From Candidatus Kapaibacterium sp. (GTDB lineage Bacteria; Bacteroidota; Ignavibacteria; Kapaibacteriales; UBA7675), in contig JANQRB010000139.1 in NCBI GenBank assembly GCA_028284775.1, positions 124,001-188,000 of the forward strand: 64,000 nucleotides of DNA. Direction: 5' to 3'. The first letter of the stretch is position 1, and each line of letters begins with the position of its first letter. The notes beneath the pieces were generated by a model that saw nothing but the letters and a program-made list of their open reading frames with translations, was not told where the DNA came from and made no database searches. Made by a program: the position numbers and the translations under genes. Shown piece by piece: positions 1 through 11,819 of the stretch.

Positions 1-2
1 TT

Positions 3-122
3 ATCGAACGTTGGGTTTTCTCCGGCAATCGCGAGTTTGTCTTTGTGGATTTCAGCGGCTTCGGCGATTTTCGCTTATCAACCGCCCTCAGCCCAGGTGA
101 GAAGTACGTTTACGGACGATGA
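3..122 (+). CDS. C-terminal fragment of an unidentified protein
   Basis: An open frame enters from the left edge and ends at a TGA after 39 codons. The translation contains FVFVDFSGFGDFRLST. This resembles the end of GWxTD-domain proteins, in which a FVFVD..GFGDYRL-like strand closes the domain, but so short a tail cannot be assigned firmly. Only the last 39 residues are visible and nothing is known of the start. The other two frames here are less protein-like. Confidence 0.45.
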   Translation: MERWVFSGNREFVFVDFSGFGDFRLSTALSPGEKYVYGR

Positions 123-1829: not shown

Positions 1830-1858
1830 TTGACACGAAGAAAAAAATATAGTAATTT
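1830..1858 (+). promoter_or_regulatory. Candidate promoter of the peptide cluster
   Basis: A perfect TTGACA hexamer at 1830-1835 is followed after 17 bases by TAATTT at 1853-1858, a weak -10 match. An A-tract lies in the spacer. The overlapping TAATTTAG is also close to the Bacteroidota -7 consensus TAnnTTTG. The first peptide start codon lies 54 bases downstream, preceded by a GGAG ribosome binding site at about 1900-1903. Confidence 0.45.
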
Positions 1859-1911
1859 AGCGATAGTTAAATCAAAAAGCAAGTCACTTAGTAACTGATG
1901 GAGAAATTTTT

Positions 1912-2085
1912 ATGAAAGCTTTTAATCTTGACACCCTGAGCCTTGACGAAATGTCGAACATCGATGCCGGTTCGAATGATCCTTTTGCCGGTTCTTTTTC
2001 AACATCGACTGAATTTGGTGTCAGCGTTGGTGACAGCGGGTATGACGATCCCGGGTTTGTGACGATCTGGAGCTTCGATGTTTAG
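1912..2085 (+). CDS. Secreted peptide precursor 1 with double-glycine-type leader
   Basis: A 57-residue precursor. The leader (residues 1-20) ends LSLDEMSNIDAG. This fits the double-glycine consensus of class II bacteriocin and ComC-type precursors: Leu at -12, Ser at -11, Glu at -8, Met at -7, Ile at -4 and Ala-Gly at -2/-1. The predicted mature part has 37 residues and starts SNDPFAG. It has no Cys, Lys, Arg or His, six acidic residues, seven aromatic residues and the C-terminus WSFDV. A GGAG ribosome binding site precedes ATG. Tandem paralogues and a C39-peptidase exporter follow on the same strand. Export and leader removal are inferred from family knowledge. The biological activity (antimicrobial, signal or other) is unknown. 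No modifying enzyme lies beside it, so an unmodified peptide is the simplest reading. Confidence 0.8.
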   Translation: MKAFNLDTLSLDEMSNIDAGSNDPFAGSFSTSTEFGVSVGDSGYDDPGFVTIWSFDV

Positions 2086-2162
2086 AGACTGAAGCTGAAA
2101 GTTGCTCCCATGTTCCCCAAGTCCAATTTTTTCCTCAAACCATAACTATCTGAGATACTACA

Positions 2163-2333
2163 ATGAGCTTTGACCTGAAAAGTTTAACCCTCGACGAAAT
2201 GACCCAGATCGATGCCGGTTCGAATGATCCCTTTGCCGGTTCTTTTTCTACTTCAACTGAATTTGGCGTCAGTGTTGGTGACAGTGGCTATGACGACCCC
2301 GGGTTTGTGACGATCTGGAGCTTCGATGTTTAG
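2163..2333 (+). CDS. Secreted peptide precursor 2 with double-glycine-type leader
   Basis: A 56-residue paralogue of the preceding peptide. The 19-residue leader ends LTLDEMTQIDAG and differs from copy 1 at several positions, including one residue of length. The 37-residue predicted mature part is identical in amino acids to copy 1, although nine of its codons differ, all synonymously. The start codon follows CTGAGATACTACA, a weak ribosome binding site compared with copy 1. The 77-base spacer after copy 1 is itself partly repeated after copy 2, so gene and spacer were duplicated together. Confidence 0.8.
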   Translation: MSFDLKSLTLDEMTQIDAGSNDPFAGSFSTSTEFGVSVGDSGYDDPGFVTIWSFDV

Positions 2334-2410
2334 AGACTGGATTTGAAAGTTGTTTTGTATTCCCAGGATTCAATTTTTTTCCTCAAACCATAACTATCTG
2401 AGATATTGCA

Positions 2411-2581
2411 ATGAGCTTTGACCTGAAAAGTTTAACCCTCGACGAAATGACCCAGATCGATGCCGGTTCGAATGATCCCTTTGCCGGCTCTTTTTCCACT
2501 TCGACTGAATTTGGTGTCAGTGTTGGTGACAGTGGCTATGACGATCCCGGGTTTGTGACGATCTGGAGCTTCGATGTTTAG
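2411..2581 (+). CDS. Secreted peptide precursor 3 with double-glycine-type leader
   Basis: Third tandem paralogue, 56 residues. The leader is identical to copy 2 and the predicted mature part is identical to both other copies. Five codons of the mature part differ from copy 2, all synonymously. The last eleven codons and the stop are identical in DNA in all three genes. The sequence after the stop diverges from the spacers of copies 1 and 2, which marks the end of the tandem array. The exporter starts 448 bases downstream on the same strand. Confidence 0.8.
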   Translation: MSFDLKSLTLDEMTQIDAGSNDPFAGSFSTSTEFGVSVGDSGYDDPGFVTIWSFDV

Positions 2582-3029
2582 AGGAGAACTCTGACTTTTA
2601 CCCACTTCAGTCAGCCTTCCACCTTGCGCTGATGAAATGATGCCCTTTAATAGTACAGGCCTAACGTGAAATTCCGTTTTCTGCACATTGAACTCGGAAG
2701 CTCCTTTTTCCACCAATTGCAATACGCCGCAACAGCGATTTGGGCAACACTAGCAAAAGTGAAGCTCTACATCCAGAAAAATTTGAGGCTACGAATATCA
2801 GATTCAGCATCGTAGCCTATTAGTGCACAAAAGTAATTTTCCTGTTAGCATTAGAATCGTCTTTTTGTTCATTTACTTGTCGCAGCTAAGCAAACTTTGG
2901 CCATACACATGCATCCTGGTCAATAGTAAGCAGAATGCCTAAACTGGGGCGTTCAATCACCAGAGAAGTTTGGCACGCATTTGGATAGAAAGAGAGGATT
3001 GAGTTTCAGCGGATTATTGAATACTACAA
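2582..3029. other. Spacer between peptide genes and exporter
   Basis: A 448-base stretch on the path from the peptide genes to the exporter, without a convincing gene. It contains the hairpin listed at 2786-2818. No further leader-type peptide could be found in the forward frames. An antisense open frame across copy 3 continues into it but has no protein-like features. A promoter for the exporter could lie here, but none matches a consensus well. Confidence 0.5.
2786..2818. terminator. Hairpin between peptide genes and exporter
   Basis: AGGCTACGA and TCGTAGCCT form a perfect 9-bp stem around a 15-base loop. On the + strand it is not followed by a clear T-run. On the - strand CAAATTTTTC follows. 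It may act as a partial terminator or RNA stabiliser that separates high peptide expression from lower exporter expression, as is common downstream of bacteriocin structural genes. This is inference from position. Confidence 0.35.
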
Positions 3030-5222
3030 ATGCGACGTAGATTTTTCTTTGTCAAACAACAAGATGAACGTGACTGCGGCGCAGCATGCATTGCCTCCAT
3101 CACCGCATATTACGGTTTGAAGATTCCTCTTGCACAAGTACGAGAATTTACGGCCACCGATCGTAAGGGCACCACGATACTCGGCCTCGTGGAAGCCGCT
3201 GAAAAATTAGGATTCCAGGCCAAAGGAGTCAGAGGAACACTTGATTCATTGCGGGACGTTCCAACACCGTTCATTGCCCGAATCGACAAGCCAGGTGTGG
3301 GATTCCATTATGTCGTCGTCTACAATATCGGCAAAAAGCATGTTCACATTGGTGACCCGGCGCAAGGCATTGTAAAAGTGACGCTGGCGGACTTTCTCAA
3401 TCAATGGACAAACATTCTGGTCCTTATCAGCCCGGCCGAAAACTTTGCTCCCGCCGACCACACCGAATCAAATCTACGACGATTCTGGCATTTGATTCGC
3501 CCCCATAGCAGCCTGCTTGCTGAAGCATTCGTTGCCGCCATCGTCTACACCGTCCTGGGTGTCCTTACGGCATTCTATGTGGGTACACTTCTCGACTCAG
3601 TGTTCCCCAACGGCGATGAACGATTGCTGCATATTCTATCGGCGGGCATGCTGCTGCTGATCGTACTGCGCGCTTTCTTCGGCTGGACACGCCGCCTCTT
3701 GCTGCTAATGGTGGCCCAGAAGATAGACGCCAGCCTCATTCTCGGCTACTACAAGCACATTCTCAATCTGCCGCAATCTTTCTTTGATGCTCGTCGGGTC
3801 GGTGAAATTATCTCACGTGTCAATGATGCCGTCAAAATCCGCACGGCCGTCAGCGGTGCGACACTGACGATCCTGGTCGATTCGCTGATGATAGTCTTTG
3901 CATTCGCTGTTCTGCTGCTCTATTCAGCCAAATTGGCCCTGCTGGTAGCTTGTGTTTTTCCGGGTTTTGTCATGGTGTTTATGTTGTTGCGAGGTCCGAT
4001 TCGGCGCACACAGCGATCGCTGATGGAACGTTCGGCCGAGTTACAGGCTCAATTCACCTCCAGCATCAACGGCGTCGAAACGATCAAAGCCGTTTCAGCC
4101 GAAAATTATTCCAACCTCAAAACGGAACTGATTTTCACGCGCATCCTGCGCTTGATGGACAGCGCGACCAAACAGAATATGTTCAACTCAACAGCGGCCG
4201 AGCTCTTAAGCTCGATTGCGGTGGTGACGCTCTTCTGGTTCGGCGGCTTGCTGGTGTTTCAGGGCGATATCAGTCTCGGTGAATTGGTTGCATCATTCAC
4301 GCTGCTCGGTTACCTGACTGCGCCGCTGGCGCGTCTGGTCAACGTTCATCAGAATGTACAGGATGCCCTTATTGCCGCCGATCGCTTGTATGAAATTCTG
4401 GCCATCGAAACCGAGGACAAACACAACGAACTCAAGATCAAACTGGATGTCGACAAGGTAAACGGCGAGATTCTCATCGATGGCTGTTCCTTTCGCTATG
4501 GCGCCCGCGCTGACGTCATCAATAAGCTAAGCTTCAGCATACCGGCGGGCAAAATTACTGCAATTGTCGGCGAGTCAGGTTCCGGCAAGTCGACAATTCT
4601 TAAGTTGCTCCAAAAAATGTATAGCGTCCGCGAAGGCAAGATTTTGTTGGACGGCGTTGACCTGCGCGACATTGAAGTGCACTCACTGCGACAAGTACTC
4701 GGTGTCGTCCCGCAGCATATTGAACTGTTTCACGGCACGGTTCTTGAGAATGTGGCCTACGGTGAATCACAGCCTCGCGTCCAAAGAGTGATGGAAGTAT
4801 GTAGTCTCGTCGGGGCTGATGCGTTCATCAACGACCTGCCCCATCGATATAATTCATTGCTCGGCGAACATGGTGCAACGATCTCCGGTGGTCAGCGCCA
4901 GCGCCTGGCCATTGCGCGAGCGCTCTACAAGGACCCACGCGTGTTACTGCTCGACGAAGCGACCAGTAATCTCGACAGCGCCGCGGAAGCCGCCATCCAA
5001 AAACTACTCAGTTTGCTGAAGTTCCAGAATATGACCATTGTCCTGGTGGCTCATCGTCTGAGTACTGTTATGCGCGCCGATCAGGTTGTTGTTGTCGAAA
5101 AAGGCGCTGTCGCTGAGTTCGGCACACATAAAGAGCTGCTGCAAATGCGCGGCAAGTATTTCGATATGTGGAATCGGCAAATTCCTTTTAACTCATTCAG
5201 CGATTTATTGACGGAATCGTAA
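3030..5222 (+). CDS. Peptidase-containing ABC transporter (C39 bacteriocin exporter)
   Basis: A 730-residue protein with the full peptidase, membrane and ATPase layout of PCAT exporters, which cut double-glycine leaders and pump out the peptide. The C39 peptidase (residues about 1-140) has all catalytic residues: Gln10 (oxyanion), Cys16 in DERDCGAAC, His93 in GFHYVVV and Asp109 in GDPAQG. Six membrane segments follow (about 160-450). The ATPase has Walker A GESGSGKST (about 514), signature ISGGQRQR (about 617), Walker B VLLLDEAT and H-loop VAHRLS. It sits just downstream of three leader-bearing peptide genes and one base upstream of its adaptor, so substrate and partner are inferred with good support. 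The ribosome binding site is weak. All key residues are intact, so a degenerate peptidase is unlikely. Confidence 0.93.
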   Translation: MRRRFFFVKQQDERDCGAACIASITAYYGLKIPLAQVREFTATDRKGTTILGLVEAAEKLGFQAKGVRGTLDSLRDVPTPFIARIDKPGVGFHYVVVYNIGKKHVHIGDPAQGIVKVTLADFLNQWTNILVLISPAENFAPADHTESNLRRFWHLIRPHSSLLAEAFVAAIVYTVLGVLTAFYVGTLLDSVFPNGDERLLHILSAGMLLLIVLRAFFGWTRRLLLLMVAQKIDASLILGYYKHILNLPQSFFDARRVGEIISRVNDAVKIRTAVSGATLTILVDSLMIVFAFAVLLLYSAKLALLVACVFPGFVMVFMLLRGPIRRTQRSLMERSAELQAQFTSSINGVETIKAVSAENYSNLKTELIFTRILRLMDSATKQNMFNSTAAELLSSIAVVTLFWFGGLLVFQGDISLGELVASFTLLGYLTAPLARLVNVHQNVQDALIAADRLYEILAIETEDKHNELKIKLDVDKVNGEILIDGCSFRYGARADVINKLSFSIPAGKITAIVGESGSGKSTILKLLQKMYSVREGKILLDGVDLRDIEVHSLRQVLGVVPQHIELFHGTVLENVAYGESQPRVQRVMEVCSLVGADAFINDLPHRYNSLLGEHGATISGGQRQRLAIARALYKDPRVLLLDEATSNLDSAAEAAIQKLLSLLKFQNMTIVLVAHRLSTVMRADQVVVVEKGAVAEFGTHKELLQMRGKYFDMWNRQIPFNSFSDLLTES

Positions 5223-5223
5223 G

Positions 5224-6519
5224 GTGAGCAGCGAAAAACCAATAGCGCCCAAACTAATGCTCCCGAACGGCGACAATCGTATCACGATTCCTGAAATTAT
5301 CGCCAGACCGGCATCAAGCCAGGACGGCATCGTCCTGAGCGAGGATTTACTGCCCCAGACCGTTGAGGTTTACCTGGCACGTCCCTCGCGCCGGCAGCGC
5401 TGGGTCTTCTGGCTACTAATCCTCTTGCTGGCCGGTATCAGCGGCTGGGCCTACTTTTCCAAAGTTAACATCGTAATTCGGGCGCCTGGAATTATCAGAC
5501 CCTCCACTGATCTGCAGGTATACTACGCACCCTTTGATGCCTTGCTTGAAAGATTGGATGTCAGCGAGAATGCCACGGTGCAGGCGGGCGACACGCTCGC
5601 AGTTTTCCGTCTGCGCGAGTGGAAAGAACAACAGCAACTCACCGAACAAGAGCTCCAGGAGTCACAGCGCGAGATAAATGACATCCGGCGGATCCTCGAG
5701 GTCCTGCCCGCCGAAGTGAGCGGGACCAATGTTATGACTGCACTGCCGGAGTCGATCGAACTCAGCCTGCTCAAGTATCGTTCGGACTATAGCCTTCTGC
5801 AGCGCGATCTGCACCTGATGCAGGAACAATTCACGGTGTTTAAGAAACGCAGTGATCGTGCCGAGCGCCTTTTTGATAAGAATGTCATCAGCGCCGAAGA
5901 ATATGATACCGAAGCCAGTGCGACCCGTCTGCAGGAACTTAAGATTAAACAATTTCTGAATGACCAGGAGAAGAAGCTGCGCGATGCGGCTTTTGCGCTG
6001 CAGCAAACGCAAGTAGCCATGCAGAAGGACCTGGCTCAGCTGCGCAACACTATCGACAAAGCGCATATCATAGCCAATGTCTCCGGTACGATTAGTTCGC
6101 TGCGTGTCGCCAAGAAAGGGATATTCTGCAATCGCGGCACTGAGCTGTTTGCCGTTACGCCGGATCTTGAGCTGCGGGCTGAAATTCGAGTGCCGCCAAA
6201 AGACGCGGGTCTGCTGCGTGACAGTCTGCAGATCAGTTATCTCGTGGAAGCATACAGCTACAGCGACTGGGGCGCCGCCACGGGCTATATCACGACCATT
6301 CCGGATGATATCATCCTGGATCGCGAGACCGGTAAGGCCTACTTCAACGTCCTGGGTTCATTTGACAGCCTGAGCTTGCCATACAAGAAAGCAGCCCAAT
6401 CCGGGATCGCCGTACCGCTGCGCAAAGGGCTGACTTTTCAGGCCAATATAATCGTGGGGCAAAAACGTCTGCTGGAGTTGCTGTACGACAAAAGCGTAGA
6501 CTACTTTCACTTTGAATAG
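5224..6519 (+). CDS. HlyD-family periplasmic adaptor of the peptide exporter
   Basis: A 431-residue membrane fusion protein. A cytoplasmic N-terminus of about 55 residues precedes one membrane segment (WVFWLLILLLAGISGWAYF). Then come a lipoyl/barrel half-motif (VIRAPGIIRPS), a long coiled-coil hairpin (about 130-270) and the closing lipoyl and beta-barrel segments. Such adaptors bridge the inner-membrane exporter to an outer-membrane channel, and no TolC-type gene is in this window. The GTG start lies one base after the exporter stop, so translation is probably coupled. Its 3' end overlaps the convergent kinase gene by 13 bases. Confidence 0.9.
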   Translation: MSSEKPIAPKLMLPNGDNRITIPEIIARPASSQDGIVLSEDLLPQTVEVYLARPSRRQRWVFWLLILLLAGISGWAYFSKVNIVIRAPGIIRPSTDLQVYYAPFDALLERLDVSENATVQAGDTLAVFRLREWKEQQQLTEQELQESQREINDIRRILEVLPAEVSGTNVMTALPESIELSLLKYRSDYSLLQRDLHLMQEQFTVFKKRSDRAERLFDKNVISAEEYDTEASATRLQELKIKQFLNDQEKKLRDAAFALQQTQVAMQKDLAQLRNTIDKAHIIANVSGTISSLRVAKKGIFCNRGTELFAVTPDLELRAEIRVPPKDAGLLRDSLQISYLVEAYSYSDWGAATGYITTIPDDIILDRETGKAYFNVLGSFDSLSLPYKKAAQSGIAVPLRKGLTFQANIIVGQKRLLELLYDKSVDYFHFE

Positions 6520-8615
6520 ACGCCGTTGGCGGAAGGGAATTCAACGCCAAAGGTAGCGCCGTCGCCGAAGCGGCTTTCACACCAGATCCGGCCATTCATT
6601 TCTTCAACAAACTTTTTCGAAATGGCCAGACCAAGACCCGAAGAGCTCTCGCCGCCGGTCGGCTTGGCGCTCAGCCGAACAAACTTCTGAAACAGTCGGC
6701 TTTTGTCATCATCCGTCAGTCCCGGTCCTTCATCGCGCACGGCACAAACAACCCGCTCGCCTGCGCTTTTGAGACTGATCCAAACATCTTTCTGTTTGGG
6801 TGAATATTTAAGGGCGTTGGAAAGCAGATTCTCGATCACTTCACGAATCCGCTCTTCGTCGCCGATTATCAGATGGCGTGCATCTTCACTGCTGTAGTGC
6901 AGATTGATGCGTTTCTTGTTGGCGCGCGTCGTGTACAGATCCACAATCGAAGCGGCGATATCGTCCAGCGAGATTAACTTGCGCTCAAAGTGCATCTTGC
7001 CGTCTTCCAACATACGTACATCCAACAGGTTGGACACCAGCTTCATCATCGAATCCGAACAGCCTTGAATATTGTCGATGTACTTCAGAATATCGCGCTT
7101 GGTGAGCAGCGACAGATATTGCTTCATGGAGTCGGCAGCCAGCAACACGCCCGTCAAGGGATTCTTCAGGTCGTGCGCAACGATACTCATGATCTCATTC
7201 TTCTCGTTGTTAACTTTCCGCAATTGATCATTAGTGTATTGCAGCTTTTCGTTGGCGACTTCCAGCTCATGGTTAACCTTCATCGTCTCCAGCTGTTGCA
7301 CTTCAATCTCTTCTTTGGCAGCTTCCAGCGAACGGGTCTTTTCTTCCAGGGCCGTATTCGTTTGCTCGATTTTAACGAGTGCCGAAGCCAGCTCAACGTT
7401 TTTCAGACGATAAATCTCTTTTTCCCGTTCGACGCGTTCCATGTCATAGCGGAATTCAATTGCGGTGATCGCTTTTTGTTTTTCGATGTTAAGAACTTCG
7501 TCCCTGATCTGAGAAAATCTTCGATAATGAAATAACGACGATTCAAAATCCTTTAATTTTTCATATACAGAAGAACAGTGTTCGTGAACACGGAAGCTGA
7601 GTTCTTTATCATTAATTTCTTCGGCAATTGACAAAGATTCGACACAACTATCTATCGCCTGTTCATAATTCTCAATTGCTCCTAAAATTTTGGCGATGTT
7701 TAAGTGCACACTGGCTTGGCCAGCCTTATCTCGCAGCTGTTCAAAAAAGAGGAGAGCCTTCTTTTGATACTCCAAGGCGGATTTATGGTCTCCCAGATCA
7801 TTGTAAACATTACCCATATTCTGAACTGCATGAGCAATGCCATTTTTATCTCCGATTTTTTGACGCACCTGAAGAGACTTAACTAAACATTCCAGAGACT
7901 CATCGTATCTCTTGAATACCTGAAAAATGAGACCGATGTTTCCAAGCGTTTGAGCCAGACCGCTATACTCATCGATTTCCTCAAAAATTGGAAGTGCTTT
8001 CTTGAGATACTTGAGCGCAGTTTCGTGGTGGCCAAGGTAAAAATAAATTGCACTGATGTTATTTAGCGTCCGAGCTGCGTTTCTTTTGTCACCAAGCTCT
8101 TCGCTAATATTGACGGCCTTCAGGTGAAATTCGAGCGCGGTATCATATTGCGAGAGTTGTTGATAGATATTTCCGATGTTTGTAAGTACGTTGGCGGCTG
8201 ATTTCTTATCCCCCGCACTCTCAAGTAGATTTAGTGATTTATGCTGGTGATCCAGAGCCTCATTGAATTTGCTCAATTTTAGATACACAGCCCCAAAAAG
8301 ATTGTGAACGCTCGCTTCACCCTCTTTGTTGTCAATCTTTTGAAATATCTTCAAGGCAGACTGCGCGTCTTCCAGGGCCGACTTACTGTTTCCAAGCAAA
8401 AAGCTGGTCACTCCCGAATTACGATAACTGTATCCCTCCGCTTGTCTATACTCGTTGGATTCGGCTAGTTTTCTGGCATTGACAGCCAGCTTCCGTGCAA
8501 AATTCGGATTATTGTACCTGGAATTCCACGCACACTCATTCAGGATATCTGCGCGTTCCCGGTCATCGTGGGCCTGGTCAAGTTTTTGCTGTATGTCCGG
8601 GTATTCTTCCAGCAT
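6507..8615 (-). CDS. Soluble TPR-sensor histidine kinase
   Basis: A 702-residue cytoplasmic kinase without membrane segments. Residues about 55-370 form a run of some eight tetratricopeptide repeats with a period near 40. A long coiled coil (about 385-470) leads into HisKA. The H-box IVAHDLKNPL carries the phosphorylated His near residue 478. ATPase motifs are N-box NLLSNALKYS, G1 DEGPGL and G2 GLGLAI. The TPR part probably senses a protein or peptide ligand, by analogy with other TPR kinases. No response regulator lies nearby. It is convergent with the exporter adaptor and overlaps its end by 13 bases. The TPR half looks richer in A/T than the kinase half, as if the sensor were grafted. Confidence 0.9.
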   Translation of the reverse strand: MLEEYPDIQQKLDQAHDDRERADILNECAWNSRYNNPNFARKLAVNARKLAESNEYRQAEGYSYRNSGVTSFLLGNSKSALEDAQSALKIFQKIDNKEGEASVHNLFGAVYLKLSKFNEALDHQHKSLNLLESAGDKKSAANVLTNIGNIYQQLSQYDTALEFHLKAVNISEELGDKRNAARTLNNISAIYFYLGHHETALKYLKKALPIFEEIDEYSGLAQTLGNIGLIFQVFKRYDESLECLVKSLQVRQKIGDKNGIAHAVQNMGNVYNDLGDHKSALEYQKKALLFFEQLRDKAGQASVHLNIAKILGAIENYEQAIDSCVESLSIAEEINDKELSFRVHEHCSSVYEKLKDFESSLFHYRRFSQIRDEVLNIEKQKAITAIEFRYDMERVEREKEIYRLKNVELASALVKIEQTNTALEEKTRSLEAAKEEIEVQQLETMKVNHELEVANEKLQYTNDQLRKVNNEKNEIMSIVAHDLKNPLTGVLLAADSMKQYLSLLTKRDILKYIDNIQGCSDSMMKLVSNLLDVRMLEDGKMHFERKLISLDDIAASIVDLYTTRANKKRINLHYSSEDARHLIIGDEERIREVIENLLSNALKYSPKQKDVWISLKSAGERVVCAVRDEGPGLTDDDKSRLFQKFVRLSAKPTGGESSSGLGLAISKKFVEEMNGRIWCESRFGDGATFGVEFPSANGVYSK

Positions 8616-8780: not shown

Positions 8781-11700
8781 TCAGGCGCCAATCGGCAGGC
8801 AGACCGTAAATGTCGATCCCTCACCTTCCTTGCTTTCGACCGCTATCGTCCCTTTGTGTAATTCCACAAAGTCTTTGACAATCGAAAGGCCGATACCCGT
8901 GCCCGGCCGATGCATACTATTCGAAGCCCGAAAAAAGGGCGTAAAGAGACGGTCCAGTTCTGTCTGAGGGATGCCGATGCCCCTGTCCATGACTTTGATA
9001 TTGACCTGGTCTTCGTTGCGACACAGCTTGAGCTGTACACTGTGTTTGTTGTCGGAATACTTGATTGCATTGGACAACAAATTTTTGATCACTTGTCGCA
9101 GCAGCTTTTCGTCAGCCCTGACCCAGGGAACGTCTTCGCTGAAATCGCTCTCGATCTGCGTTGCTTTCGGGTCATTTGAACGCAAATGGTCCAATAGTTC
9201 CACGCAAAGAGCGCGCACATCCACAAATTCGAGATTGAGACTTTCGCCAACTGCGGGCAGGGAACTCTGTAGTAAAAAATCATCCATGAGATGTGTGAGC
9301 TCGGTCACGCGGTTTTTGATCTTGCGAACCTCCTCCAACCGATTGACGACATCCATACGATCCACATAGCGTTCAAGCATTTCCGCGGAGGAAAGGATGC
9401 CAGTCAGCGGCGTTCGAAACTCATGCGATACGGTTGAAACAAAGCGCGTCTTAAGCAGGTTCAGTTCCCTTTCGGTTTCCAGGGCTTTACGCAGGTGCAG
9501 CTCTGCCTGCTTCTGCTCCGTGATAATATGACAAAACATGCGGATGATATCGCTTTCGCTCAAATACGATACCGACAGCTCATAAATAATGTGTTCGTGT
9601 TCCAACTCCTGCCGAATGACCGTATCGGGTGCCTCCGTGAGATTTTCGACCCTGCCGACAAGCCAGTTTAGTACGGGATGCGCAAATCCCTGCTCGTCAA
9701 GATCGGGGAAATGTCGATACGCAACCCGATTGCGATAGACTACTTCACCATTCTTTCGGATTTCGATTATCGGGTTGGGGTTTTGCTCGGGAAAGCTGGC
9801 CAGGGCACGCAGTCGCTCTTCGACGGCTTTCTTTTCAGTCACGTCGAGCGCAACCTGGATATAATACCGCTCGCCGCTTTCCACCTGATAACGCGTCGCA
9901 TACATTTCCAGCCAGCGGTACGCACCGGACTTATGCCGAAAACGATAGGTTTCGTGCAGTACCGCGGCCGAGTCTTCCTGAAACCACTTATCCCATTTAT
10001 CATTCACTCTGTCACGGTCATCCGGATGGTACAGATTCATCGTCTGCTCGCGATTGAACTGCGAGAATTCTTCCGGCGTATATCCTGTTTGCCGCACGAA
10101 GGCTTGATTGCCGCCCGAAAAACGGCGTATGCCATCTTTTTCGACCATCTGCATAATCGCAACCGGAACAGCATCGACCAGCACCCGGTTGCGCTCTTCA
10201 CTGTCACGCAACAGGTGCTCCACCTCTTTCAGTCCGGTAATATTGACCGCCGAACCGACTACTTCACGAACTGATCCGCCCTCGTTGACAGGTTCCAGGG
10301 CGTAGAATAGCCATTGTCCATCGAATTCGAGCTCAAATGTAACCGACTCCCCCGCAAAAGCACGATCGAGAAAAGGACCGACGCGGAGACGATGCGCTTC
10401 GCCAAAAACTTCGTCCGGAGCGTATCCTTTCACCCGTTGCGATGTGAATTCACCGGCCAACTTTCCTTCACGCAGCATATAGGCATAGCGGTCGTCGGCC
10501 GTCCGCACAAGCTTGAAGACCAAATTCTGGAGATTCTCGATTGTGCGACGAAAGTCTTTCGTCAGCGAGTCCTCCACGGCATCCTGCGCGCGTTTCAATT
10601 CACTGATATCAACGCAAATCTGATTGAGCGCGTATACGGAGTCGTTCTCATCGACATCGGCGTAGAGGTAGGTGTCGAGCCAGCGCAGCTCATTGTTTCT
10701 GTTGATGATTCGATAATTAATATGCTTGCGACCGATGTAGCCCTGCGCCTGCCATTCCTTGAAAAACGCAAAAATGCGCTCGCGATCCGCCTCGTGAATC
10801 ATCGCCACCAATTCCTGCGGCGTCAGAGCTTCATATTCTTTAAGCGTATAACCGCATTGCCGCTCGAATTCCTGATTCACATACTCGTAGCGATGCTCCT
10901 CGAGCAGATATTTCGTGACGGCAACCGGCGCATTTCGGACAAGCTGACGAAAGTTCTCTTCGCTCTGTCGCAACTCCAGCTCGGCCCGCACCCGGCCCGT
11001 CACGTCGGTCAAAACGCCCACGGATCCGCGCGTGGCAGCAGCTTCGTCGATAATAGACGTCAGCGATATTTCGACCCATATCCGCTCGACGCCGTTCTTA
11101 ACCAGTGTATTCAGATAGCGACCGGATTCACTGCCATAGGTGGTTTGCCAGCGATCCACTTGTCCGCGACTGTCGAAATCGGCATCAAAAACATCTGAGT
11201 AATCACGTCCCAGTAAACTCTCTCTGCTGCGAGCCGTAAGCTCGCACATCCGCGCATTTACGTATTCGATAACGCCATCGGCATTGGCCATAAACAAAGC
11301 TTCGCCAAGGCTTTCGAACACCTTTCGATAGTGGTCCAATTCGGCCAGGCTGCCTGTGGATGTTGGTGTTTCGTTCTCGCTCTCGCTTTCCGAATCCAGC
11401 AGATCGGCGCAACGTACGTGAATCACGTAGCATTCGAGCTGACCCTCGGAATCCTGTGATGTATGCAGAGCACGGCTCAGGTCGAAACGCATTCTCCCGG
11501 GGAAGATTCCTACGAGACGCTGAGCGTCGGATGCACGGACAGAAAGTGCGGCGATTTCAAGGAAGGTCATCTCCCGGGTCAGCTCACCCTCGATGCACTG
11601 AAATCGCAATACATCATCTATCGAAACACTGCCCTTATCTGCTGTCCCAAGCTCACACAGATTCCTGGCGGTATCATCGGCAAAACGTATGCACGCGTCG

Positions 11701-11819
11701 CGGTTCAGGACAAAAACGCATTCTACCCAACGCCCGGTGTCGGCGTCGCGATTTGGCCCCTGCTGATCTGAAGAGAAATCCAGCGGCCGGCGATCGTCGT
11801 GTGCCAATACATTACTCAT
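8781..11819 (-). CDS. Multi-PAS sensor histidine kinase
   Basis: A 1012-residue soluble hybrid-sensor-style kinase. After an N-terminal segment of about 150 residues come at least four PAS folds (about 165-285, 290-415, 420-535, 540-670) and a fifth weaker one (about 670-775). HisKA has FVSTVSHEFRTPL, with the phospho-His near residue 798. The ATPase has NLLSNAIKYS, DRGIGI and GTGIGLSI. There is no receiver domain and no membrane segment, so the input is probably intracellular or redox/light-like through PAS cofactors that cannot be predicted here. The gene lies 165 bases upstream of the TPR kinase on the same strand, so the two may be co-transcribed. No partner regulator is visible. Confidence 0.9.
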   Translation of the reverse strand: MSNVLAHDDRRPLDFSSDQQGPNRDADTGRWVECVFVLNRDACIRFADDTARNLCELGTADKGSVSIDDVLRFQCIEGELTREMTFLEIAALSVRASDAQRLVGIFPGRMRFDLSRALHTSQDSEGQLECYVIHVRCADLLDSESESENETPTSTGSLAELDHYRKVFESLGEALFMANADGVIEYVNARMCELTARSRESLLGRDYSDVFDADFDSRGQVDRWQTTYGSESGRYLNTLVKNGVERIWVEISLTSIIDEAAATRGSVGVLTDVTGRVRAELELRQSEENFRQLVRNAPVAVTKYLLEEHRYEYVNQEFERQCGYTLKEYEALTPQELVAMIHEADRERIFAFFKEWQAQGYIGRKHINYRIINRNNELRWLDTYLYADVDENDSVYALNQICVDISELKRAQDAVEDSLTKDFRRTIENLQNLVFKLVRTADDRYAYMLREGKLAGEFTSQRVKGYAPDEVFGEAHRLRVGPFLDRAFAGESVTFELEFDGQWLFYALEPVNEGGSVREVVGSAVNITGLKEVEHLLRDSEERNRVLVDAVPVAIMQMVEKDGIRRFSGGNQAFVRQTGYTPEEFSQFNREQTMNLYHPDDRDRVNDKWDKWFQEDSAAVLHETYRFRHKSGAYRWLEMYATRYQVESGERYYIQVALDVTEKKAVEERLRALASFPEQNPNPIIEIRKNGEVVYRNRVAYRHFPDLDEQGFAHPVLNWLVGRVENLTEAPDTVIRQELEHEHIIYELSVSYLSESDIIRMFCHIITEQKQAELHLRKALETERELNLLKTRFVSTVSHEFRTPLTGILSSAEMLERYVDRMDVVNRLEEVRKIKNRVTELTHLMDDFLLQSSLPAVGESLNLEFVDVRALCVELLDHLRSNDPKATQIESDFSEDVPWVRADEKLLRQVIKNLLSNAIKYSDNKHSVQLKLCRNEDQVNIKVMDRGIGIPQTELDRLFTPFFRASNSMHRPGTGIGLSIVKDFVELHKGTIAVESKEGEGSTFTVCLPIGA

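What the first reader, a model, noticed from the sequence alone, without database searches (positions are those of the whole stretch)
1912..6519. Self-contained peptide secretion locus: three identical-core precursors, C39 exporter and adaptor
Seen directly: three tandem small genes whose leaders fit the double-glycine consensus, followed on the same strand by an exporter with an intact C39 peptidase (Q10, C16, H93, D109) and a HlyD-type adaptor. The mature peptide is acidic, aromatic-rich, and free of Cys and basic residues. That does not resemble lantibiotics, pediocin-like bacteriocins or siderophore microcins known to me. No modifying or immunity gene is recognisable.
Basis: partly seen in the sequence, partly recalled or inferred. 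Interest (0 to 1): 0.9.

Follow-up and report, generated by a model that had tools for sequence, protein, structure and literature searches.

The report
Acidic secreted-peptide locus with dedicated exporter
An uncultured bacterium related to the Ignavibacteria carries three copies of a gene for the same small acidic peptide next to the one machine in its genome that can trim and export it; such loci are a known kind, but this peptide family is new, keeps its tail end across related genera, and does not look like an ordinary bacterial toxin.

Summary
Window 1912-2581 holds three small genes whose mature 37-residue peptides are identical. Their DNA differs only at third codon positions (9, 7 and 5 silent changes, no amino-acid change). 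A C39 exporter with intact catalytic residues and a HlyD adaptor follow. The genome has one C39 protein and no other gene with this leader. All three genomes of the family, from three genera, keep the order GWxTD protein - peptide - exporter - adaptor, and share a promoter (window 1830-1860), a GGAGA ribosome site, an acidic core and a C-terminal 'IW'. In a second family (UBA7675, Ignavibacteria) a contig edge before the exporter ends in ...ATIIWSQIP*, probably a fourth, truncated member. No other homologue was found in 391 genomes of the class. The kind is known: double-glycine peptide + C39 exporter + HlyD loci are widespread in Bacteroidota, one with five tandem near-copies. New is the peptide family, more acidic than all 34 Bacteroidota cargoes compared. 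Export is well supported; function is not shown. I weakly favour a peptide acting on the producer's own population (EbfG-like matrix or surface factor, or a signal) over a bacteriocin. The neighbouring histidine kinases are not an obligatory part.

The parts
1830..1860 (+). Conserved promoter: TTGACACGAAGAAAAAAATATAGTAATTTAG (TTG, 20 nt, TAATTTAG), resembling the Bacteroidota-type -33/-7 promoter
   Evidence: Only stretch of the 1.8 kb upstream region conserved with G001 (81% over 54 nt); pattern kept in all three genera; located by exact pattern. Assignment to the Bacteroidota sigma factor is from general knowledge.
1900..1904 (+). GGAGA ribosome-binding site of peptide gene 1
   Evidence: Invariant in the three-genus alignment
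1912..2085 (+). Peptide precursor gene 1: leader MKAFNLDTLSLDEMSNIDAG | core SNDPFAGSFSTSTEFGVSVGDSGYDDPGFVTIWSFDV
   Evidence: the leader profile matches only these peptide genes in the three genomes at E below 1
2133..2157 (+). 25-nt repeat CCTCAAACCATAACTATCTGAGATA before peptide gene 2 (part of the duplicated unit)
   Evidence: read directly; identical copy at 2381-2405
2163..2333 (+). Peptide precursor gene 2: leader MSFDLKSLTLDEMTQIDAG | identical core
2381..2405 (+). 25-nt repeat before peptide gene 3
2411..2581 (+). Peptide precursor gene 3: protein identical to gene 2
2786..2818 (+). 9-bp hairpin without a T run in the peptide-exporter gap (possible RNA processing or partial stop; weak)
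   Evidence: fold z = -2.6. G001 has a strong terminator-like hairpin with T run in the same gap (z = -4.4); G002 has none.
3030..5222 (+). Peptidase-containing ABC exporter, 730 aa; C39 domain at residues 7-137, catalytic C16, H93, D109, oxyanion Q10
   Evidence: Pfam C39 6.8e-37, ABC_membrane 3.3e-45, ABC_tran 7.7e-35; TIGR01193 554 bits against a cut-off of 524; PCAT1 alignment; only C39 domain in the genome
5224..6519 (+). HlyD-type periplasmic adaptor, 431 aa (start codon GTG as called)
   Evidence: HlyD_3 2e-8, HlyD_D23 6.5e-8; TIGR01843 3.9e-29 but below its curated cut-off; homologue 43% identical in G001, 34% in G002

Best explanation
A dedicated type I-like secretion locus for one unmodified acidic peptide. 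A conserved promoter transcribes the tandem peptide genes. The C39 domain of the adjacent exporter binds the leader, cuts after Asp-Ala-Gly and drives the 37-residue peptide through exporter, HlyD adaptor and an unlinked TolC-type channel to the outside. Three copies raise the dose. Outside, the peptide most likely acts on the producer's own population rather than as a toxin: best guess a matrix or surface component, with the conserved hydrophobic C-terminus as its sticking part, working like the EbfG1-4 proteins of Synechococcus elongatus; an intercellular signal is the close alternative. Shown here: genes, selection on the coding sequence, catalytic residues, leader fit, promoter and synteny conservation, one exporter per genome. 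Inferred: cleavage site, export, use of TolC, absence of modification. Not shown: the extracellular role.
For: Only synonymous change among the copies. Leader fits the C39 consensus and is found only beside this exporter in G000, G001 and G002. One C39 gene per genome in all three family members, each next to the peptide. Promoter and ribosome site conserved across three genera. Same chromosomal place (rimO - GWxTD - peptide - exporter - HlyD) in three genera, and the exporters of four families of the order form one clade (SH-aLRT 97), which fits long vertical inheritance rather than a mobile bacteriocin island. No immunity-like gene kept between the genomes. Core strongly acidic in all three (-6, -6, -4), without the cationic or membrane-helix character of bacteriocin-type cargo: 34 Bacteroidota cargoes range from -3 to +2. 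The C-terminal hydrophobic segment (TIWSF, TIWSF, PIWVIIG, TIIWSQIP) is the best-kept part of the core and scores as an aggregation hot spot on the AGGRESCAN scale as I recall it. Precedents: EbfG1-4, four GG proteins encoded in tandem and secreted with the help of C39 exporter PteB, needed for biofilm, three of them amyloid-forming (PMC4997328, PMC9981879); Treponema denticola, three tandem GG genes, secreted, no killing detected (PMC11879956).
Against: No experiment. EbfG mature proteins are larger (6-7 kDa, PMC4997328) and no sequence kinship is shown. G001 and G002 have only one gene copy. The strong negative charge would oppose self-association unless cations help. Structure prediction gave no confident fold (mean pLDDT 51.5). 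The same exporter clade carries bacteriocin-like cargo in family f8.
Confidence: 0.4

Rival explanations
1. Class II microcin-like bacteriocin: the exported peptide inhibits competing bacteria, probably close relatives, with target and self-protection unknown.
For: Exporter and adaptor are the usual bacteriocin export pair. In sister family f8 the same exporter clade has a typical GxxxG hydrophobic cargo (FWATLGGFFLGLFMGFAVGGIIGAVLGAGQGAVIDDARP, L084), and many Bacteroidota relatives have bacteriocin-like cargo, one with five tandem near-identical genes (L107). The core diverges between genera while the leader is kept. Bacteroidetocins also lack a recognised immunity gene (PMC6671954).
Against: Net charge -6 and no basic residue, no Cys, no long amphipathic or membrane helix; no immunity-like gene in any of three genomes; chromosomal place conserved across genera, not a mobile island; precursors of 48-57 aa are shorter than verified class II microcins (75-120 aa, PMC9746304).
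Confidence: 0.3
2. Quorum or status signal: the peptide is exported and read by a receptor on sister cells, or after re-uptake by a TPR protein such as the neighbouring TPR histidine kinase.
For: Small size, dedicated conserved promoter, conserved C-terminal motif with divergent middle, TPR histidine kinase next door in the window, G001 and G011; C39 exporters serve pheromones in streptococci (the competence-peptide exporter ComA is the second best-matching solved transporter).
Against: The TPR kinase is absent (E up to 1e-60) from G002, which keeps peptide and exporter, and relatives of it occur in G010 and G014, which lack the orthologous exporter. The kinase is also kept in place as part of a long syntenic block. 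Three copies are not needed for a signal.
Confidence: 0.2
3. Precursor of a modified natural product (RiPP) whose enzyme is encoded elsewhere.
For: Ser/Thr/Asp-rich core; cyanobacterial NHLP and N11P double-glycine precursors are mostly acidic (PMC3140520).
Against: No modifying enzyme recognised among the neighbours in three genomes; no match to NHLP, N11P or any precursor family; the exporter scores far below the NHLP exporter cut-off (476 against 853 bits).
Confidence: 0.08
4. Non-functional or untranslated repeats.
For: None beyond lack of expression data.
Against: All differences between the cores are silent; homologues in other genera with promoter and ribosome site conserved.
Confidence: 0.02

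Closest known systems
Double-glycine peptide + C39 exporter + HlyD loci of Bacteroidota (e.g. Chitinophaga L099, Larkinella L106, Dyadobacter L107)
   Same: Exporter about 43-46% identical over its length, small GG-leader genes near it, sometimes as tandem near-copies
   Different: Their cores are neutral or weakly charged (-3 to +2), many with GxxxG; the window family is -4 to -6 with a conserved C-terminal IW; no core homology
EbfG1-4 / PteB of Synechococcus elongatus (PMC4997328, PMC9981879)
   Same: Several tandem GG-type small secreted proteins, C39 exporter; mature proteins without homology to proteins of other cyanobacteria
   Different: EbfG mature proteins are 6-7 kDa and differ from each other; different phylum; no sequence kinship tested
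Class II microcins (microcin V type, PMC9746304)
   Same: Precursor with GG/GA-type leader, C39 exporter, membrane fusion protein, TolC elsewhere
   Different: No immunity gene found, shorter precursor, strongly acidic core without Cys, no activity known
PCAT1/CtA (solved exporter 4ry2, 6v9z; PMC6959990)
   Same: Exporter is full-length homologous (9e-163) and the leader keeps the L-12, E-8, L/M-7 and hydrophobic -4 contacts
   Different: CtA cargo is 66 residues; Gram-positive host
TepA1-B1 locus of Treponema denticola (PMC11879956)
   Same: Three tandem GG-signal genes upstream of exporter genes; secreted, no killing found
   Different: Each peptide gene is paired with a lipoprotein gene; no sequence kinship tested

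Membership tests
Peptidase-containing ABC transporters (PCAT, C39) | N-terminal C39 domain with Cys/His/Asp and oxyanion Gln, fused to ABC membrane and ATPase domains | tested here: met
Double-glycine (GG) leader peptides | Short leader with hydrophobic -12, -7, -4, acidic -8 and a small pair (GG, GA, AG) at -2/-1, next to a C39 exporter | tested here: met
   Pattern met in all five full-length precursors of the three genera (consensus)
Double-glycine (GG) leader peptides | Leader actually cut by the C39 domain and the rest exported | not testable with these tools
   needs in vitro cleavage or mass spectrometry
Class II microcins | C39 exporter, membrane fusion protein and TolC-type channel | tested here: met
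   (channel unlinked)
Class II microcins | Cognate immunity gene next to the precursor | tested here: not met
   No recognisable candidate in the window; the peptide-exporter gap shows no meaningful conservation. Immunity genes are hard to recognise, so this is weak.
Class II microcins | Antibacterial activity | not testable with these tools
   needs an inhibition assay
Class IIa (pediocin-like) bacteriocins and bacteroidetocins | YGNGVxC motif or at least two Cys in the mature peptide | tested here: not met
   Mature peptide has no Cys and no such motif (features)
Class IIb two-peptide bacteriocins | Two different peptides with GxxxG helices | tested here: not met
   All three cores identical; GxxxG occurs in the window core (GVSVG) but not in G001 or G002
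Lanthipeptides, NHLP and other RiPPs | Modifying enzyme in the cluster, recognised precursor family | tested here: not met
   No such neighbour recognised in three genomes; no precursor family match
EbfG-type biofilm proteins (works like) | Required for biofilm; matrix or cell-surface location; amyloid formation | not testable with these tools
   Only analogy of architecture and a hydrophobic hot spot
EbfG-type biofilm proteins (membership) | Sequence homology to EbfG | not tested
   No EbfG sequence was compared

The most novel reading that the evidence does not exclude
A lineage-specific family of acidic exported peptides, vertically kept with one dedicated exporter per genome, serves as a self-directed extracellular factor (matrix builder or intercellular signal) in Ignavibacteria-related bacteria, recognised or assembled through its conserved C-terminal IW segment; to my knowledge this would be the first such peptide system described in that group.
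Probability: 0.25. Interest if true: 0.6.

Novelty: new member of a known kind. Interest (0 to 1): 0.4.

Why it matters
Double-glycine peptides of Gram-negative bacteria are predicted in very large numbers and are usually filed as bacteriocins. This family is a clean case in which that default is doubtful: one exporter, one cargo, fixed chromosomal place, conserved promoter, acidic core, conserved tail. A 37-residue unmodified peptide is easy to synthesise, so killing, signalling and matrix roles can be told apart directly.

Tried and rejected
(1) Homologues outside the family: peptide and profile searches of 119 relatives and 391 genomes of the class gave only the three genomes; the other hits up to E = 1 mostly lie inside larger frames and score at chance level, and were dropped. 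(2) Orphan cargo elsewhere in the three genomes: leader profile found none. (3) GG peptides next to the other exporters of the order: none by pattern in f6 (the short frames before the exporter there look like a translated tRNA, by eye only), present in f8 but unrelated in the core. (4) TPR histidine kinase as dedicated receptor: rejected as obligatory because G002 lacks it. (5) AlphaFold of the precursor: no confident structure, so no fold search was made. (6) Mature peptide against solved structures: nothing. (7) Rfam and tRNA scans of the window: nothing. (8) Rest of the fourth peptide in G011: a search for it on another contig found nothing. (9) Literature on such loci in Ignavibacteria/Kapabacteria: none in the library searched.

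Full report
What is there. The window lies at 124001-188000 of contig C119 of a 7.9 Mb, 190-contig genome. Three small genes (1912-2085, 2163-2333, 2411-2581) precede a 730-residue ABC exporter with an N-terminal C39 peptidase (3030-5222) and a HlyD-type adaptor (5224-6519), all on the + strand. The three mature peptides are identical; the leaders of copies 2 and 3 are identical and that of copy 1 differs. Between the cores there are 9, 7 and 5 nucleotide differences (pairwise), every one at a third codon position and silent. That is strong evidence that the reading frame is translated and selected. The mature peptide has net charge -6 and no Lys, Arg, His or Cys.

The exporter. Q10, C16, H93 and D109 are present and invariant among four related exporters. 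The closest solved protein is PCAT1 (9e-163), followed by the competence-peptide exporter ComA. The genome has no second C39 domain. The leaders carry the contacts seen between PCAT1 and its substrate: L-12, E-8, M-7 and a hydrophobic residue at -4 (PMC6959990). An outer-membrane channel is not encoded here, but 13 OEP-type domain matches exist in the genome.

Relatives. The family holds three genomes from three genera; each has exactly one C39 gene, with a small GG-type peptide gene just upstream. G001: MQNLEIQTLTLDEMTQIDAG|TSSISYDTSFDAISEPAMDSGNAGYALETIWSFEA. G002: MKNFDIETLTIEELTEVDGG|ATQGTIDKDIFLPGVDEDHTQPIWVIIG. Invariant in the alignment are leader positions and, in the core, one Gly and the C-terminal Ile-Trp. 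All cores are acidic (-6, -6, -4). The gene order rimO - GWxTD-domain protein - peptide - exporter - HlyD is the same in all three. In G011, a member of another family of the order (record title Ignavibacteria bacterium UBA7675), the contig ends 137 nt before the exporter match, and that stub reads ...ATIIWSQIP* with a stop about 106 nt before the exporter; G002 has about 110 nt in that place. I take it as a fourth member cut by the assembly edge; this is inference from nine codons. A search for the remainder found nothing. A profile search of 391 genomes of the class found no further homologue, and the leader profile found no other cargo in the three genomes.

Regulatory anatomy. Of the 1.8 kb before the first gene only about 54 nt are conserved with G001 (81%). 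They contain TTG-N20-TAATTTAG at 1830-1860, largely kept in all three genera together with a GGAGA ribosome site. This resembles the -33/-7 promoters of Bacteroidota (general knowledge). In G001 a strong hairpin with T run lies between peptide and exporter (z = -4.4), which would give more peptide than exporter mRNA. The window has a weaker hairpin without T run (z = -2.6) and G002 none, so this is not a shared feature.

History. In a tree of 49 exporters those of families f1 (window), f10, f6 and f8 form one clade (SH-aLRT 97), sister to 26 exporters, all but one from Bacteroidota records. The simplest reading is old vertical inheritance with cargo turnover: in f8 the same exporter clade sits near a strongly hydrophobic GxxxG peptide (L084) or near a different family (L054, L058), and in f6 no GG peptide was recognised.

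How it works, and how sure. Export of a cleaved 37-residue peptide through exporter, adaptor and an unlinked channel is well supported by anatomy (my estimate about 0.85) but not shown. The role outside is open. Against a bacteriocin: strong negative charge without a basic residue (34 Bacteroidota cargoes compared span -3 to +2; that set was picked by leader pattern and eye), no immunity-like neighbour, fixed chromosomal place. For a bacteriocin: cargo of sister loci, the usual export pair, fast core divergence, and bacteroidetocins that also lack a recognised immunity gene (PMC6671954). For a matrix or surface role: tandem copies, hydrophobic C-terminus scoring as an aggregation hot spot (AGGRESCAN values recalled from memory), and the EbfG precedent (PMC4997328, PMC9981879). 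For a signal: dedicated promoter and conserved terminal motif. The adjacent TPR histidine kinase is the obvious candidate receptor, but G002 keeps the peptide system without it and G010 and G014 keep a relative of the kinase without the orthologous exporter; it also belongs to a longer syntenic block, so adjacency carries little weight.

Comparison. GG peptide + C39 exporter + HlyD is a known kind, common in cyanobacteria (PMC3140520), Enterobacterales (PMC9746304) and Bacteroidota (PMC12648078). Five tandem near-copies occur in Dyadobacter L107, so multiplicity is not new either. New here is the peptide family. I file it as a new member of a known kind, not as a bacteriocin.

Limits. The genomes are metagenome assemblies; only three or four members are known; no expression data; nothing was run against metagenome collections.

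Noticed in passing
6507-8615 (-) and 8781-11819 (-): A TPR-repeat histidine kinase and a multi-PAS histidine kinase converge on the adaptor gene; an orthologue of the TPR kinase lies beside the exporter in G001 and G011, but G002 has none.
   Followed up: yes
1-122 (+), complete gene in L017 12770-14122: GWxTD-domain protein of unknown role directly upstream of the peptide genes in all three genera; paralogues are common in the order.
   Followed up: partly
123-1829: About 1.7 kb without a credible gene between the GWxTD gene and the peptide promoter; the whole gap is only about 590 nt in G001 and 525 nt in G002. Possibly decayed sequence.
   Followed up: partly
L084 (G056, family f8), 1060-869 nt before the exporter match: GG peptide MEKFTGIKGIQPLSRQEMENTGGG|FWATLGGFFLGLFMGFAVGGIIGAVLGAGQGAVIDDARP, a GxxxG-rich bacteriocin-like cargo near an exporter of the same clade.
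   Followed up: partly
L058 757-933 and L054 5729-5863 (family f8): Two further GG peptides sharing a core start DNTATV, one followed by a hydrolase-like gene, one by a metallopeptidase-like gene (by eye), then the exporter.
   Followed up: partly
L107 126-947 (Dyadobacter diqingensis): Five tandem GG peptide genes with core WYVSLLWGAIEFGSSHN (one with an extended C-terminus) before a related exporter.
   Followed up: no
L069-L072 (family f6): Orthologous exporter + HlyD without a recognisable GG peptide nearby; cargo unknown.
   Followed up: partly
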